DNA from: Candidatus Poribacteria bacterium
GTDB lineage: Bacteria > Poribacteria > WGA-4E > UBA9662
Direction of reading: 5' to 3'
DNA length: 5,082 bases
Assembly: GCA_002729015.1 (NCBI GenBank)
Contig: PBVO01000021.1
Span: 1-5,082, forward strand
The translations under genes were made by a program, and so were the position numbers. Positions 1 to 5,082 of this stretch are shown in pieces; position 1 is the first letter of the stretch; every line of letters starts with the position of its first letter. The notes under the pieces are model-generated. The model was given only the letters and a program-made list of their open reading frames with translations. It did not search any database and was not told where the DNA came from.

Positions 1-638
1 AGATTATCGATACGTCGTTTCATATTTTTATCATGGCTGATAATTGCACCGCCTTCGAAGGTATTAAATACTTTTGTTGCGTGAAAGCTTAGTATAGACA
101 TGTCACCGCAATTCAGAATGCTTTTGTTTTTATCTTCTACGCCAAAGGCGTGCGCGGCATCGTAAATTACTCTTAAGTTATTTATTCGTGCAATTCTCTC
201 AATTTCAGCTGTATCGCATGGATTGCCATAGCAATGCACGGGTAATATAGCGGTTGTTTGGGGTGTGATGGCAGCTTCGATTTTTTTTGGATTGATGTTT
301 AGAGTGTGAGGTTCAATGTCCACAAAAATAGGTTTTATACTATTCCACAATAAAGAATGCGAGGTGGCTACAAAAGAATAGGGGGTCGTTATAACTTCAC
401 CGGTCACTCTAAGAGCCTGCAGAGCTGATACCAAAGCTAATGTCCCATTTGAGAATAAGGATACGTATGGTACGTTCAGGTAACTCGCTAAACCGGACTC
501 TAGTTGGGTGTGAAAGGGGCCATTGTTTGTTAGAGATCTATTTTCCCAAATTTTCTCAAGGTATGGTAGAAATTCCTCAAGCTCCGGCAAATATGGGCGG
601 GTGACTTCAATTGATCTGTTTTTCAATTCCGTTTCCAT
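1..638 (-). CDS. DegT/DnrJ/EryC1/StrS-family sugar aminotransferase, partial (C-terminus beyond left edge)
   Basis: A PLP-dependent aminotransferase of the family that converts nucleotide-linked keto-sugars to amino-sugars in the cytoplasm, for surface polysaccharide or glycoprotein synthesis. I translated 212 codons from the ATG at 638; the frame stays open to the window edge. Family hallmarks are the N-terminal segment VTRPYLPELEEF (12-23), LTNNGP (36-41), FSNGTLAL (62-69, phosphate/PLP region), TTPYSFVAT (84-92), DAAHAFG (160-166, with Asp160 expected to pair with the PLP ring nitrogen) and SFHATK (184-189, with Lys189 the expected Schiff-base lysine). Members usually have about 370-390 residues, so a bit over half is visible and the catalytic core looks intact. 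The style resembles VioA/FdtB-like 4- or 3-amino-dideoxysugar transaminases, but the exact sugar cannot be read from this. It lies 61 bases after the GT-B glycosyltransferase on the same strand, probably in one operon. The ribosome binding site is weak (GGG about 8 bases upstream). Confidence -1.
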   Translation of the reverse strand, partial: METELKNRSIEVTRPYLPELEEFLPYLEKIWENRSLTNNGPFHTQLESGLASYLNVPYVSLFSNGTLALVSALQALRVTGEVITTPYSFVATSHSLLWNSIKPIFVDIEPHTLNINPKKIEAAITPQTTAILPVHCYGNPCDTAEIERIARINNLRVIYDAAHAFGVEDKNKSILNCGDMSILSFHATKVFNTFEGGAIISHDKNMKRRIDN

Positions 639-699: not shown

Positions 700-2283
700 T
701 CAGTTTATCAAACTTTGTGATTTTTGGTTTGCAACATTTATTCTGTCTTTATTATGTTTCCATTCTAGCGCCCTAATCAACTTTTGAACGCTATCTTTGA
801 ACTTTGGAAATTGATCAAAGATAGAGTACGCTATTTGTTGGCGAGTGGCTTGATCCAACTCTAAATGATAAGTGATCAATCCAAGAAGCTCCGTATAGTT
901 ATCTGCTAGGTATTCCGAAGGCAAAATGTTTGATACGTCGCCATAATTTATGGAAAAAACTGGTGTTCCATGTCCGATGGCCGTTGCAGCTGCACCACCA
1001 CCGCCTAATCGTTTGGTATTGACTAGAAAATCAATCATACTCAGGAACGTTTTTATTTCTGTTATCTGTCCAAGAAATTCTGCGCGTGGCCCACACATCC
1101 GACCTATCTTTGTAACGAGCTTATCCTCGCAACGACCAACAAGAAGAAATTTTATTCTTGGGTCTGTTTGAAGTGTTTTATTGATAAATTCAATTTCATC
1201 AAGCCCAATCTCCCAATCTAATCTATTACTCACAACAGCTATTAAAATTTCCTCAGCTTTGTATCCGAATTCGGATTTGCTGGCTGGTTTTCTTCCAAAT
1301 AAACTATCTTGTTGCGCCGCCTGGCTCACTATTTTTTTATATTTTTTTGAATCAATTTGTGCGCCCTCAAGCGCCTTGATTTGTGTCGAAGAAAGTTCTT
1401 CAAATACACTTACGAGTGAAGAAAAAGGCGAGGGAACAAGCATGGATGATGTCATGTAGATGAGTGATGGTATATGACTCGCGATAAATTCTTGGAAAAT
1501 ATTGTAACCCCCAACATTTATCATAAAGCCAGGTTGTATTTTTTCTAGGATTTCGAAGAAGTCCTCTAGAGAACTTTTCTTGAAATGACTGGCGGCTAAA
1601 TTGTATATAGGGACCTCCTTTCCATCAAAATCCCAGATACGAAACCCTTCTGGAGTGTCAAGGTAATTTCCTTTGAATGGCTCTATCACGGGTAATTTAT
1701 TCTCGGGTGGAAAGGACTGAATTTGCACTATTAATACCTCAAAGCCTAATTCCAGAAGTGCATCATACAGTTCTAATAAAAGCTGTGTTGGTGAATGACT
1801 CACGCTGAGGATCTGGCTTGAAACAAGTAAAATTGTTTTTTTATTCTGATTAACGTTGTACTCCAGAGTTAAGTCGGAAGATTCATCTTTAAACTCCTTA
1901 ACAAGAGAATTGAACATTTTGGCTAACGGCTTATCGAAAGATATATTTTTCCGAAACCCTATTGTGACTAGATTATAAATAAAGGCGTTTTTATTCTCTA
2001 CCCCCGAGATTTTATTGAAAATTTTTTGGATATGATGGTCAATTTGTTCGTCATGAAAATATGATGCGTAAATGCTCAAATAAAAGATACTTAATGGGAG
2101 TTGTTGCTTTAAATTGTGTTCATTCGTCAGGAAGTTTTTAATCTGATCTCGCACATAGTCCTTATTTTCTTGGGAAAGATTTGGGATTTCATTACGATTA
2201 TCAGCAATTGCCCGACAATGAGAATCTAGATCGCCTTCTAATCGGAAAAGTGAATTGAAAGCTGATAATAAAATATCCGACAT
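700..2283 (-). CDS. GT-B-fold glycosyltransferase with N-terminal helical domain
   Basis: A predicted cytoplasmic or membrane-associated glycosyltransferase of 527 residues from the ATG at 2283; an in-frame ATG at 2295 would add four residues. I prefer 2283 because it overlaps the upstream stop as TAATG and has GGGA six bases before it, while 2295 has no ribosome site. Residues 1 to about 140 look helical and match no domain I can name. A first Rossmann-like half begins at about 149 (TILLVSSQILSVSHSP) and a second at about 345 (ILIAVVSNRLDWE, then FLLVGRCED near 379-387). The second half carries the donor-site glycine motif GGGGAAATAIGHGTPVFSI (427-445). The usual glutamate in the E-A-(M/L)-A-x-G-x-P-V pattern is a threonine here. 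There is no signal peptide or transmembrane segment. The neighbouring sugar aminotransferase suggests polysaccharide assembly. The GT-B fold call is fairly secure, but CAZy family and sugar specificity are unknown. Confidence -1.
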   Translation of the reverse strand: MSDILLSAFNSLFRLEGDLDSHCRAIADNRNEIPNLSQENKDYVRDQIKNFLTNEHNLKQQLPLSIFYLSIYASYFHDEQIDHHIQKIFNKISGVENKNAFIYNLVTIGFRKNISFDKPLAKMFNSLVKEFKDESSDLTLEYNVNQNKKTILLVSSQILSVSHSPTQLLLELYDALLELGFEVLIVQIQSFPPENKLPVIEPFKGNYLDTPEGFRIWDFDGKEVPIYNLAASHFKKSSLEDFFEILEKIQPGFMINVGGYNIFQEFIASHIPSLIYMTSSMLVPSPFSSLVSVFEELSSTQIKALEGAQIDSKKYKKIVSQAAQQDSLFGRKPASKSEFGYKAEEILIAVVSNRLDWEIGLDEIEFINKTLQTDPRIKFLLVGRCEDKLVTKIGRMCGPRAEFLGQITEIKTFLSMIDFLVNTKRLGGGGAAATAIGHGTPVFSINYGDVSNILPSEYLADNYTELLGLITYHLELDQATRQQIAYSIFDQFPKFKDSVQKLIRALEWKHNKDRINVANQKSQSLIN

Positions 2284-2465
2284 TAGTTTTCCCATTCTGG
2301 ACGAAATTTACTTAATGCCTGTTTTGCTAGCAAGATATATGCCATTGTTAGCCAAGGTTTTTTATGCTTTGCGTAATAGTTTATGGAAGACTTTATTTCA
2401 CATTGTCTGATTAAAATGGCAGATGGATTTAATTTTGATGGGGTATTTTTTAGTAATCGGTACAA
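2283..2465 (-). CDS. Short unidentified frame, possible remnant of a larger gene
   Basis: A 60-codon frame opening with TTG at 2465 and ending in a TAA that shares its last base with the ATG of the GT-B gene (TAATG). The peptide reads like ordinary globular protein: PSAILIRQCEIKSSINYYAK, followed by a basic helical stretch with KKPWLTMAYILLAKQALSKF and the end RPEWEN. I do not recognise it. No ATG is available. The frame continues upstream of the TTG through plausible codons (ISCLFLCKQEL) to a TAG at 2505-2507, which fits a 3' remnant of a decayed or deleted gene at least as well as an independent small protein. The stop/start overlap with the next gene is typical of genuine adjacent genes in an operon, which favours past or present translation. 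Chance is not excluded. Confidence -1.
   Translation of the reverse strand: MYRLLKNTPSKLNPSAILIRQCEIKSSINYYAKHKKPWLTMAYILLAKQALSKFRPEWEN
2290..2293 (-). promoter_or_regulatory. Candidate ribosome binding site deciding the GT-B gene start
   Basis: On the minus strand GGGA followed by six bases precedes the ATG at 2283, inside the last codons of the 60-codon frame. The alternative ATG at 2295 has only TCGTCCAGA before it, with no purine-rich core. The site supports the start at 2283 and translational coupling through TAATG. The match to the Shine-Dalgarno consensus is only partial. Confidence -1.
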
Positions 2466-2609: not shown

Positions 2610-4868
2610 ATGACCAAGAAAACCTTACTCTCCATTATTGTGCCTACGTTTAATCGCCAATTCGCATCAGAGAGAATACTGGAATATTGTAGGGTGCTTC
2701 ACCTAGCGTTGGAAGGCACCACGGTACAATTCGAAATGATTGTAATAGATGACGGCTCAAAAGAAGATATTTGCGCTGAAAACAAACGCAAACTCAAGAA
2801 AATGTCCGCGATAAAATTTTACGAGTCTCACCAAAACAAGGGACCAGGTGTTGCCCGTGATTATGGACTCCAATTTTCATCAGGCAAATGGGTTTGGTTT
2901 CTCGATGATGACGACGAACTTGATCCGAAGGGGTTAAAAACACTCGTTGATGCGCTCAGCTCAGAGTTTCGAAAGGAAGATGTAATCGCACATTCACTCC
3001 AAAACGATTACTCTAATCACGCGGGAGAATTGGCTGAAACGATAATAAAAAAATTACTGCACTTCAGAGAAAAACAAGAAGTATTTAATTACATTTTCCG
3101 GAGGGAATTTCTTCTTAGTAACGAAATTAAATTTTCAGAAGGATTTCATGAGGATATAAGATATCTTTATCAAGTTTTTTCCGAAATGTCTGGTTTTCAT
3201 ATCTTGCCGAGAAGAGTGGTACTGAAAAGAAATTCAGAGGAAGCTATAACATCAAAAATGACGAGCGATCGTATAGACGGATATTTTCGTGCATTTTTGG
3301 AAATTATTGACTACGAGAGTTCAAACCGCAAAAAACTGAGAACTCAAGTGGATGTGGATGAACTATTCTCGCAGACACTCGGCGTTATTCTACATTGCAC
3401 AATGCAAGAGAACGACCAAGTTGTAGCTCACCTGCTCTCATATTTGAGAGAAAAAGTAAGTTTGGATTTGGAACTGTCTCGCCACTCGAGAGAGTGTCGC
3501 AAACATGGCGTGAATTCTACCAATTTCAAATACGCTAGCAGCTTTTGGCGAACCAACATGAAAGCTGAGCAAAGCCTGTTAATAAACGGGCTTCGTAAAA
3601 TATTTGGCACTCGACTTTCATGCAAAGACTTGGACTCTTCCTTGTTCCTTGGGCCTGACGAAATCCGTGCATGCTGTAAGAGGTTCTTTGTTGCAGGCAA
3701 GAGAAAAGGTGACGTCGTTCTCCTAAAGGGAGGTGACGAAGTAGATCTCAAGGCAATCAATGCAGCTAAGGCAGATCTAATCAGGCGTATCAATGTTGAG
3801 GGAGCTGAGGAGTGCAAAGGCTGCCCATATATAGAGCGAAGAGAGATAGGCAGTGACGCAGTCGACTATATATCTCTTGAAAATTTTTCATATTGCAATA
3901 TGAGATGCACGTACTGCTCCCCAAAATATTATGGAGGCACCGAAGCTAGTTATAATGCCGCAAAAGTAATCGAGGAACTCACAAACAAATGTGGGGGTTT
4001 GAGTCAGGATTGTCATGTTGTATGGGGCGGTGGAGAACCAACTCTCAGCCCACGCTTCAAGCCGGTAAATGAACACCTCATTTCAACGAATGCGGTTACT
4101 AAGCTACGTGTCTTATCTAATAGCCTGAGACATTCAGATCAATTACATAGTTTAATTGCTGACAAAAGAGTGCATCTTGTTACCAGCATTGATGCTGGCA
4201 CACCCTTGGCATTTCGGGAGATACGAGGTAAGGGCAACATAACCACAGTCATTGAAAATCTGCAGGCGTACTCCACTGCAATGAAGGAAAAGCGCAGGCT
4301 AACCATTAAGTACATTTTAATGCCAAATAATGCATCCTCAAGTGAATTAGAATCATTCGTATCGCTTATGGTGGAAGCAGGGTTGATGGAGTCCATGTTT
4401 CAGATAAGCTGTGATTTTACTCTAGAGTCAGCGCCAAGTTTGCTGGTCTGTGCAATGTATGAGCTAGCCGCCAGACTATACGCTGCAGGTGCAGCTATCG
4501 TTTTTTTTGACGATCTGATTCGAGACAGAGTTAAACTCGCTGACCTGGATATAAATTCGGTAAGGGAACACCTACAAAAAAACTTAGTAAGCCAGAAATT
4601 TATTCAGTTTCCGAACCCGGAGAAAAAAATTGTATTATGGGGACGCGGACTACAAGCACGTTGGTTATCCGGTAGTACAAATTGCGGGCACTCGGGTTTA
4701 ATCATTGATACGGTAAGCGACGAAGCGCAATATTTTCACAAACGAGCATCTGAGGGTCTAAGTGATCTGTTGATTTACCCATCAGGCGTGCAGTCAATTT
4801 ATGAAATTATAAAAAACATTGAAGATGCAAAATTAGGCGATAAAATTCTCCGGGGTGTTTTAATTTAA
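2610..4868 (+). CDS. GT2 glycosyltransferase / radical SAM fusion protein with C-terminal Rossmann-like segment
   Basis: A 752-residue multidomain protein (757 if the GTG at 2595 is used). Positions are from the ATG. Residues about 6-210 are a GT2, GT-A-fold glycosyltransferase: LSIIVPTFNR (7-16), VIDDGS (45-50, nucleotide-binding Asp), NKGPGVARDYGL, the metal site WFLDDDDE (96-103) and HED (180-182, candidate catalytic base). A mainly helical linker spans about 215-340. Residues about 345-620 hold a radical SAM unit: CC (355-356) in a CCKRFF motif, CKGC (402-405), the 4Fe-4S motif CX3CX2C (Cys429, 433, 436), WGGGEPT (472-478, SAM binding) and SIDAGTPLAFREIRG. Residues about 672-750 resemble a Rossmann-type nucleotide-binding piece starting IVLWGRGLQARWL. 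No SPASM cysteine cluster, signal peptide or transmembrane helix is seen. The enzyme probably transfers a sugar and performs a radical reaction in surface-glycan synthesis; both substrates are unknown. Domain calls are secure, and the frame is uninterrupted. Confidence -1.
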   Translation: MTKKTLLSIIVPTFNRQFASERILEYCRVLHLALEGTTVQFEMIVIDDGSKEDICAENKRKLKKMSAIKFYESHQNKGPGVARDYGLQFSSGKWVWFLDDDDELDPKGLKTLVDALSSEFRKEDVIAHSLQNDYSNHAGELAETIIKKLLHFREKQEVFNYIFRREFLLSNEIKFSEGFHEDIRYLYQVFSEMSGFHILPRRVVLKRNSEEAITSKMTSDRIDGYFRAFLEIIDYESSNRKKLRTQVDVDELFSQTLGVILHCTMQENDQVVAHLLSYLREKVSLDLELSRHSRECRKHGVNSTNFKYASSFWRTNMKAEQSLLINGLRKIFGTRLSCKDLDSSLFLGPDEIRACCKRFFVAGKRKGDVVLLKGGDEVDLKAINAAKADLIRRINVEGAEECKGCPYIERREIGSDAVDYISLENFSYCNMRCTYCSPKYYGGTEASYNAAKVIEELTNKCGGLSQDCHVVWGGGEPTLSPRFKPVNEHLISTNAVTKLRVLSNSLRHSDQLHSLIADKRVHLVTSIDAGTPLAFREIRGKGNITTVIENLQAYSTAMKEKRRLTIKYILMPNNASSSELESFVSLMVEAGLMESMFQISCDFTLESAPSLLVCAMYELAARLYAAGAAIVFFDDLIRDRVKLADLDINSVREHLQKNLVSQKFIQFPNPEKKIVLWGRGLQARWLSGSTNCGHSGLIIDTVSDEAQYFHKRASEGLSDLLIYPSGVQSIYEIIKNIEDAKLGDKILRGVLI

Positions 4869-5014: not shown

Positions 5015-5082
5015 ATGAGAAATAGAGTTTTAATCGTGGGGGCGGGACCCGCTGGATTGTCTCTGGCTGCTTATTTAACCAA
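5015..5082 (+). CDS. FAD/NAD(P)-binding oxidoreductase, N-terminal fragment
   Basis: The first 22 codons of a gene cut by the right edge: MRNRVLIVGAGPAGLSLAAY, then LT. The strand-glycine-loop-helix pattern VLIVGAGPAGLSLA is the classic GxGxxG dinucleotide-binding fold at the N-terminus of FAD-dependent oxidoreductases. Possible relatives include amine oxidase/protoporphyrinogen oxidase-like enzymes, UDP-galactopyranose mutase-like enzymes and FAD-dependent monooxygenases; the fragment cannot separate these. I chose the ATG at 5015 because it directly precedes the first beta strand and an in-frame TGA lies upstream at 4973-4975. GGA at 4998-5000 is rather distant for a ribosome site. It is 146 bases downstream of the GT2-radical SAM gene on the same strand, so co-transcription is possible but not shown. 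Confidence -1.
   Translation, partial: MRNRVLIVGAGPAGLSLAAYLT

What the first reader, a model, noticed from the sequence alone, without database searches (positions are those of the whole stretch)
2610..4868. One polypeptide joins a GT2 glycosyltransferase, a radical SAM enzyme and a Rossmann-like tail
Seen: an uninterrupted frame with complete GT2 motifs (IVPTFNR, DDGS, DDDDE, HED) followed by complete radical SAM motifs (CX3CX2C, GGEP, SIDAGT) and a WGRG nucleotide-binding-like end. Known: radical SAM genes occur in polysaccharide clusters (sugar dehydration, epimerisation, methylation or peptide modification), usually as separate proteins. Inference: fusion to a glycosyltransferase suggests that sugar transfer and a radical modification act on the same acceptor, for example a lipid-linked glycan or a protein. 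This is the best candidate here for an undescribed system.
Basis: partly seen in the sequence, partly recalled or inferred. Interest (0 to 1): 0.72.

Follow-up and report, generated by a model that had tools for sequence, protein, structure and literature searches.

The report
Sugar transferase fused to radical enzyme
A real bacterial and phage protein joins a sugar-attaching enzyme to a radical-chemistry enzyme, and half of the relatives that could be placed sit beside flagellin genes, which suggests an unreported way of attaching and chemically altering sugars on flagella or other surface proteins.

Summary
Confirmed: window 2610-4868 (+) encodes one 752-aa protein with an intact GT2 glycosyltransferase, an intact radical SAM core and a Rossmann-like tail. 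It is no assembly join: 112 of 120 listed homologues carry both domains. Both active sites and five extra cysteines before the core are kept in 78 of 79 GT2-containing rows. In four Prochlorococcus/Pelagibacteraceae loci the two parts are adjacent separate genes.

Carriers are rare (1-4 of 295-369 genomes in six surveys) and span five phyla plus viral contigs. In 9 of 18 genomes examined the gene lies within 25 kb of a flagellin gene. Recurrent neighbours: DegT aminotransferase (DesI-like in the window), Gfo/Idh oxidoreductase, and either an ATP-grasp ligase or an AMP-ligase.

Best reading: a bifunctional enzyme that transfers and radically alters a dTDP-derived amino sugar on flagellin, or on tail fibres in phages. 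The radical step is inferred; two-electron oxidation followed by Gfo/Idh reduction is my first choice. The window is too short to show flagellar genes. Nine paper searches listed no description. New variant of a known kind (flagellin glycosylation islands).

The parts
2610..4868 (+). GT2-radical SAM-Rossmann fusion protein, 752 aa
2622..3329 (+). GT2 glycosyltransferase domain, residues 5-240 (D99-D102, HED 180-182)
3342..3605 (+). helical domain, about residues 245-332
   Evidence: helices in the AlphaFold2 model; no Pfam match over cut-off
3609..3848 (+). five-cysteine, twitch-like module before the radical SAM core, residues 334-413 (C338, C355, C356, C402, C405)
   Evidence: C338, C355, C356, C405 in 91 of 91 and C402 in 90 of 91 rows; beta strands and a helix in the model; the auxiliary Fe-S cluster is inferred
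3861..4529 (+). radical SAM core, residues 418-640
   Evidence: PF04055 6e-11; fold matches include SkfB, PFL-activating enzyme, SuiB, BlsE, DesII
3894..3917 (+). CX3CX2C cluster motif, C429-C433-C436
   Evidence: 91 of 91 rows
4626..4865 (+). C-terminal Rossmann-like domain, residues 673-752 (WGxGxQ ... PSGVQS)
   Evidence: conserved; the profile of A3 matches 3nkl, named UDP-D-quinovosamine 4-dehydrogenase, E 9e-5
3..638 (-). DegT aminotransferase, cut by the window edge; DesI-like
   Evidence: PF01041 1.7e-60; best NCBIfam model PLP_DesI, 184.8 bits, under its full-length cut-off of 650; 70% identical to the L001 DegT, whose nearest solved chain is 2po3
700..2295 (-). 531-aa protein, possibly a GT-B-type glycosyltransferase
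   Evidence: only a sub-threshold Glyco_trans_1_4 match, 22.8 against 27 bits; no PDB sequence match at E<=1
5015..5082 (+). start of a probable FAD/NAD-binding oxidoreductase (MRNRVLIVGAGPAGLSLAAYL), cut by the window edge
   Evidence: read from the sequence; not searched

Best explanation
A bifunctional glycan-tailoring enzyme of a surface-protein (in many carriers flagellin) glycosylation pathway. Neighbour genes make a dTDP-4-amino-4,6-dideoxyhexose (RmlA, RmlB, DesI-like DegT). The GT2 domain transfers that sugar, or adds to a chain bearing it. The radical SAM domain, with its SAM-cleaving cluster and a probable second cluster held by the five preceding cysteines, abstracts a hydrogen from the sugar or its acyl group; I favour a two-electron oxidation with the second cluster as electron acceptor, after which the co-encoded Gfo/Idh oxidoreductase reduces the product. 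An acid is attached by an ATP-grasp ligase or, in other clusters, by an AMP-ligase, in some with a carrier protein. Shown: the fusion, conservation of both active sites, the gene partners, the flagellin adjacency of half of the placed relatives. Inferred: the donor, the acceptor, the radical reaction and its order, and that the window's own locus is flagellar.
For: Both active sites and the five cysteines intact in 78 of 79 GT2-containing rows. 9 of 18 genomes carry the gene within 25 kb of a flagellin gene, 6.5-15.2 kb in the nine. By my reading of ORFs it lies beside fliA/fliZ in L007, fliS/fliD/flagellins in L004, flagellins in L001, fliD/fliS and fleQ-like regulators in L002. The window's nearest relatives with genome context are L001 and L002, both flagellin-linked. 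Partners over 27 loci: DegT 24, Gfo/Idh 18, ATP-grasp 16, AMP-ligase 9, RmlB-like 11, RmlA 8. ATP-grasp only 14, AMP-ligase only 7, both 2, neither 4, Fisher p 0.011. DegT of the window's clade is nearest to DesI. GT2 fold is closest to RmlT (solved with TDP-rhamnose), TarS and TarP. Unfused adjacent pairs in L009, L012, L015, L016. BtrN is a two-cluster radical SAM enzyme that oxidises an aminocyclitol (PMC9012708, passages).
Against: In 9 of 18 genomes no flagellin gene was found near: two have none, one is 334 kb away, six have them on other contigs or on contigs that could not be matched. Four Pelagibacteraceae loci (L012, L013, L015, L016) were not put into the flagellin search; counted as unlinked they would make it 9 of 22. 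The window holds no flagellar gene. The nearest sequence relatives in the PDB are mostly peptide or cofactor enzymes. Gfo/Idh is missing from 9 of 27 loci, including flagellin-linked L002, L004, L043 and L045, so reduction by it cannot be universal. RmlA and RmlB are in a minority of loci (8 and 11 of 27). No sequence test gives the donor.
Confidence: 0.5

Rival explanations
1. The radical SAM domain modifies the protein or a peptide (for example flagellin side chains), and the GT2 domain glycosylates the same protein: a two-step protein modification rather than sugar tailoring.
For: Sequence and fold neighbours include peptide maturases SkfB, SuiB and the sulfatase-maturating enzyme; flagellin adjacency.
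Against: Among families shared by three or more loci the short ones are an acyl-carrier-like F15 and phage-only F12 and F25, no obvious precursor, though ORFs under 80 aa were not collected; partners are sugar-nucleotide and acylation genes.
Confidence: 0.2
2. The radical SAM domain is a sugar epimerase (NeoN-like logic, recalled), with C601 as hydrogen donor.
For: C601 is invariant in the 40-row alignment nearest the window and lies at the end of a strand of the model.
Against: Another residue in 13 of 91 rows of the wider family; epimerisation would not need the recurrent Gfo/Idh.
Confidence: 0.15
3. The pathway builds an LPS O-antigen or capsule unit; flagellin adjacency reflects shared insertion sites.
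For: Half of the genomes are not shown flagellin-linked and two have no flagellin gene; in pelagimyophages glycosyltransferases were read as O-chain modifiers (PMC7029224, passages); radical SAM and glycosyltransferase genes share capsule and sulphation clusters in Campylobacter jejuni HS:19 (PMC8743553, passages).
Against: 6.5-15.2 kb proximity in five lineages, where 1.3-9.3% of each of the ten genomes measured lies within 25 kb of a flagellin gene.
Confidence: 0.2
4. Assembly or sequencing join of two genes.
For: None found.
Against: 112 of 120 listed homologues have both domains; AlphaFold2 pTM 0.90.
Confidence: 0.01

Closest known systems
Clostridium difficile type B flagellin modification (PMC5207246; passages read)
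   Same: Flagellin-linked cluster with glycosyltransferase GT3, an ATP-grasp protein (0245) and an FdtB-like aminotransferase (0247); the paper links GT3, 0245 and 0246 mutants to loss of a sulfonated peptidylamido-sugar.
   Different: Has an ornithine cyclodeaminase-like and a FemAB-like protein; the passages read name no radical SAM enzyme.
Pseudomonas syringae viosamine island (PMC3927599; search listing and start of abstract only)
   Same: Flagellin glycan with a modified viosamine.
   Different: The listing names vioA, vioB, vioT, vioR, vioM, fgt1 and fgt2; whether a radical SAM gene is there was not checked.
Pelagimyophage tail-fibre region (PMC7029224; passages)
   Same: Reports glycosyltransferases in the hypervariable region with the tail-fibre genes and, in one pair of genomes, extra cassettes 'related to radical SAM' there.
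   Different: The passages describe no fusion and no DegT-Gfo/Idh-ATP-grasp module; sequences were not compared.
BtrN (butirosin; PMC9012708, passages)
   Same: Radical SAM with one auxiliary 4Fe-4S cluster; two-electron oxidation of an aminocyclitol.
   Different: The review describes twitch modules as C-terminal extensions; here the cysteine module precedes the core and a GT2 is fused.
DesI/DesII of desosamine biosynthesis (DesII structures 8hzv, 8hzy; pathway recalled)
   Same: A DesI-like aminotransferase beside a radical SAM enzyme; DesII is among the fold matches.
   Different: DesII works on a nucleotide sugar and is not fused to a transferase (recalled); the fold match is shared with many radical SAM enzymes.
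Listeria RmlT and Staphylococcus TarS/TarP
   Different: Wall teichoic acid enzymes (recalled), 14-19% identity, no radical SAM domain.

Membership tests
Glycosyltransferase family 2 (PF00535) | Profile score over curated cut-off | tested here: met
   75.1 against 23.3 bits
Glycosyltransferase family 2 (PF00535) | DXD-type metal motif and catalytic acidic ED | tested here: met
   D99, D101, D102 in 79 of 79 rows with letters (12 gapped); E181, D182 in 83 of 83 (8 gapped)
Radical SAM superfamily (PF04055) | Profile over cut-off, CX3CX2C and GGEP motifs | tested here: met
   43.1 against 29.5 bits; three cysteines in 91 of 91 rows
Radical SAM superfamily (PF04055) | SAM cleavage to 5'-deoxyadenosine | not testable with these tools
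   needs anaerobic enzymology
Twitch/SPASM radical SAM enzymes | Extra cysteine module that binds an auxiliary Fe-S cluster | tested here: inconclusive
   Five conserved cysteines N-terminal to the core; NF033640 N_Twi_rSAM scores 34.6 against a cut-off of 170, its best stretch being residues 416-597, after the module
DesII | Sequence membership of a DesII model | tested here: inconclusive
   Fold match only; no DesII model among the 25 of 45 NCBIfam matches shown
Flagellin glycosylation island | Location beside flagellin genes | tested here: inconclusive
   Met in 9 of 18 genomes holding relatives; the window itself is too short and no whole genome is held
Flagellin glycosylation island | Product changes the flagellin glycan | not testable with these tools
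   needs mass spectrometry of mutants
C. difficile type B-like pathway | ATP-grasp plus DegT plus glycosyltransferase at a flagellin locus | tested here: inconclusive
   Such combinations seen in relatives L001, L002, L007, L040; homology to the C. difficile proteins not compared; no ATP-grasp gene in the window

The most novel reading that the evidence does not exclude
One polypeptide attaches a dTDP-derived amino sugar to flagellin (and, in phages, to tail fibres) and rebuilds it in place by radical SAM chemistry, giving a class of protein glycan, an oxidised or deoxygenated amino-acylated sugar, not described so far; bacteria and their phages share the same four-gene module (DegT, GT2-radical SAM, Gfo/Idh, ATP-grasp).
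Probability: 0.3. Interest if true: 0.85.

Novelty: new variant of a known kind. Interest (0 to 1): 0.6.

Why it matters
Radical SAM chemistry was not among the reported steps of flagellin glycosylation in the papers found here. A fused transferase and radical enzyme, spread over several phyla and carried on viral contigs, would give a direct handle on radical editing of sugars on proteins, and could help to assign flagellin glycans with unexplained masses.

Tried and rejected
Assembly join: rejected. Plasmid carriage: 153 plasmid records match, none over 80% of the protein; the 20 listed cover at most 37%, all in the GT2 part. Named phages in INPHARED: 16 records, all listed, none over 80%, all in the GT2 part; copies are in 8 IMG/VR loci. 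Relatives of the window's 531-aa protein among the neighbours of the other loci: none at a meaningful E-value. Family-wide epimerase cysteine: rejected, C601 in 78 of 91. The whole-model fold searches listed only GT2 folds, so the radical SAM part was folded and searched alone.

Selections before counts. Flagellin search: 12 of the 18 genome-contig loci were given; left out were L012, L013, L015, L016 (Pelagibacteraceae) and the weak L017, L018. The 27-locus count dropped L017 and L018 (weak matches), L022 and L025 (same families and same best match as L021), L042 (near copy of L007) and the window (too short); L002_13 was recounted as a housekeeping acetyl-CoA synthetase by my reading of its sequence. 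Flanks are under 3 kb on one side in L006, L011, L012, L013 and L016, so absences there are weak. In the tree, 16 rows were labelled unfused by length or gene layout; adjacency to a GT2 gene was seen for four loci only, and six short proteins (P0108, P0111, P0119, P0121, P0160, P0174) were left unlabelled, some of which may be unfused.

Full report
Observation. The frame at 2610-4868 (+) is open for 752 codons. Pfam finds GT2 at 8-119 and radical SAM at 428-573, both over the curated cut-offs. The search against 5.8 billion proteins gave 364 homologues, of which 120 are listed; 112 of these carry both domains. Of the eight without a GT2 domain, seven are on contigs shorter than 2 kb, and the eighth (P0112, 650 aa, 33-kb contig) starts inside the GT2 domain. 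The fusion is therefore a real family.

Evolution. In four loci (Prochlorococcus L009; Pelagibacteraceae L012, L015, L016) the GT2 and radical SAM parts are separate genes on the same strand, spaced by 6, 0, -8 and 1 bases. In a tree of 46 rows the unfused label needs two changes, and the Prochlorococcus rows are nested among fused ones, which points to fission there (midpoint root, and see Tried and rejected for unlabelled rows). Survey with the radical SAM profile at E<=1e-40: 1 of 369, 3 of 298, 2 of 297, 1 of 299, 2 of 295 and 4 of 295 genomes in six groups; each count includes the known carrier used as centre, and one search found only the two carriers already known. The family is rare and patchy, as expected for variable surface-glycan genes. 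Carriers are labelled Pseudomonadota, Campylobacterota, Verrucomicrobiota, Planctomycetota and Cyanobacteriota.

Neighbourhood. Over 27 distinct loci: DegT (or a ~210-aa mini-DegT) 24, Gfo/Idh 18, ATP-grasp 16, AMP-ligase 9, RmlB-like 11, RmlA 8. ATP-grasp alone in 14, AMP-ligase alone in 7, both in 2, neither in 4 (Fisher p 0.011; relatedness not corrected, and five of the 14 are viral contigs). I read the two as alternative ways to activate an acid for attachment. In the window's clade the DegT is DesI-like: best NCBIfam model PLP_DesI, and nearest solved chain 2po3 at E 6e-71 against 3e-47 for the next (query L001; that 2po3 is DesI is recalled). The window's DegT is 67-72% identical to those of L001, L005, L006 and L007, 49% to L003 and 24-41% to the remaining full-size ones listed.

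Flagellin link. Flagellin_N positions were sought in 12 genomes of the loci and in 6 further carriers. The gene lies 8.6, 13.1, 6.5, 15.2, 6.9, 14.8, 9.4, 8.9 and 12.8 kb from a flagellin gene in G001, G002, G004, G007, G386, G1325, G1598, G1677 and G1827, and 334 kb in G543. Of the other eight, G008 and G009 have no flagellin match; G003, G005 and G006 have them on contigs other than that of the gene; for G010 and G012 the flagellin positions exceed the length of the gene's contig, so they too are elsewhere; for G011 the contigs could not be matched, and no link is assumed. Counting the four Pelagibacteraceae loci that I did not search as unlinked gives 9 of 22. At an assumed 4% chance per genome, 9 or more of 18 has p about 1e-8, but the genomes are not independent: five lineages contribute (G001; G002; the family of G004 with four; the family of G007 with two; the class of G003 through G386). 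Flagellar genes next to it were recognised by my reading of ORFs: fliA and fliZ (L007), fliS, fliD, flaG and three flagellins (L004), two flagellins (L001), fliD, fliS and fleQ/fleS/fleR-like regulators (L002). The window is nearest to L001 and L002 among rows with genome context, and that is the main reason to read its own locus as flagellar.

Viral contigs. Eight viral-contig loci carry it. L019-L025 share the order mini-DegT, GT2-radical SAM, Gfo/Idh, ATP-grasp, in L019 with one gene between the first two. In L021 the third ORF after the ATP-grasp gene is a 1567-aa tail-fibre protein, of a family also present in L022 and L025; L026 lies beside tail-protein genes. Whether all these contigs are viruses was not tested further. 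A paper on pelagimyophages already noted glycosyltransferases and radical SAM cassettes in a tail-fibre region (PMC7029224, passages).

Mechanism. Steps shown: none biochemically. Steps inferred: sugar supply by RmlA/RmlB/DegT, transfer by GT2, radical oxidation helped by an auxiliary cluster as described for BtrN and SuiB (PMC9012708, passages), reduction by Gfo/Idh, and acylation by ATP-grasp or AMP-ligase. I give the oxidation step about 0.3 on its own, and involvement in flagellin or other surface-protein glycans in the carriers about 0.6. Pairing of a radical SAM enzyme with a reductase in aminoglycoside pathways (AprD4/AprD3) is recalled, not looked up.

Against what is known. The nearest described system is C. 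difficile type B flagellin modification, where a transferase, an ATP-grasp protein and an ornithine cyclodeaminase-like protein are needed for a peptidylamido-sugar (PMC5207246, passages); no radical SAM enzyme is named in the passages read, and the search listing counts no occurrence of 'radical SAM' in that paper. Shewanella sfmE also has an ATP-grasp_4 domain and affects flagellin (PMC3765264, passages). The survey of enterobacterial flagellin glycosylation islands has no occurrence of 'radical' in its main text (PMC4875605, term search). Radical SAM and glycosyltransferase genes occur in the same C. jejuni HS:19 surface clusters (PMC8743553, passages), as separate genes. Papers with 'radical SAM' and 'flagellin glycosylation': one, on Rickettsia genomes (listing only). 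That this is not in print rests in an open-licence library that lacks most subscription journals; some searches listed only part of their matches, and most listed papers were not opened. Database names such as 'glycosyltransferase involved in cell wall biosynthesis/sulfatase maturation enzyme AslB' show that annotation pipelines see both domains.

Noticed in passing
L003 (Helicobacter sp. 11S02596-1), 4520-21839: Eleven poly-G or poly-C tracts of 10-13 bases, each in a different mechanically called ORF, GT2-radical SAM included (10388): the locus looks phase-variable. Three metagenomic relatives (P0140, P0146, P0147) are shortened and begin inside the GT2 domain; two of them start near a run of three glycines, as a poly-G tract would encode (DNA not seen).
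   Followed up: partly
27 loci: ATP-grasp and AMP-ligase neighbours largely exclude each other (14, 7, both 2, neither 4), as if either can supply the acyl step.
   Followed up: partly
L021 9357-14471, and L019-L025: Viral contigs carry a compact module with a ~210-aa DegT-like protein, under two thirds of the usual length.
   Followed up: partly
L019 8608-9936: A class-II DAHP synthase gene (PF01474, 4e-157) lies between the mini-DegT and the GT2-radical SAM gene on a viral contig.
   Followed up: no
window 700-2295 (-): 531-aa protein with only a sub-threshold GT1-type match and no PDB sequence relative, transcribed divergently from the fusion gene.
   Followed up: partly
L003 1761-2780 and 12310-13377: Two further ORFs with radical SAM-like cysteine motifs in the same Helicobacter cluster, by eye.
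   Followed up: no
PMC6321876, table passage: The Campylobacter phase-variation survey lists CFT03427 genes for an ATP-grasp-type protein and two radical SAM proteins with poly-G tracts; not compared with this family.
   Followed up: no
window 5015-5082: Start of a probable flavin or NAD-type oxidoreductase downstream, cut by the window edge.
   Followed up: no
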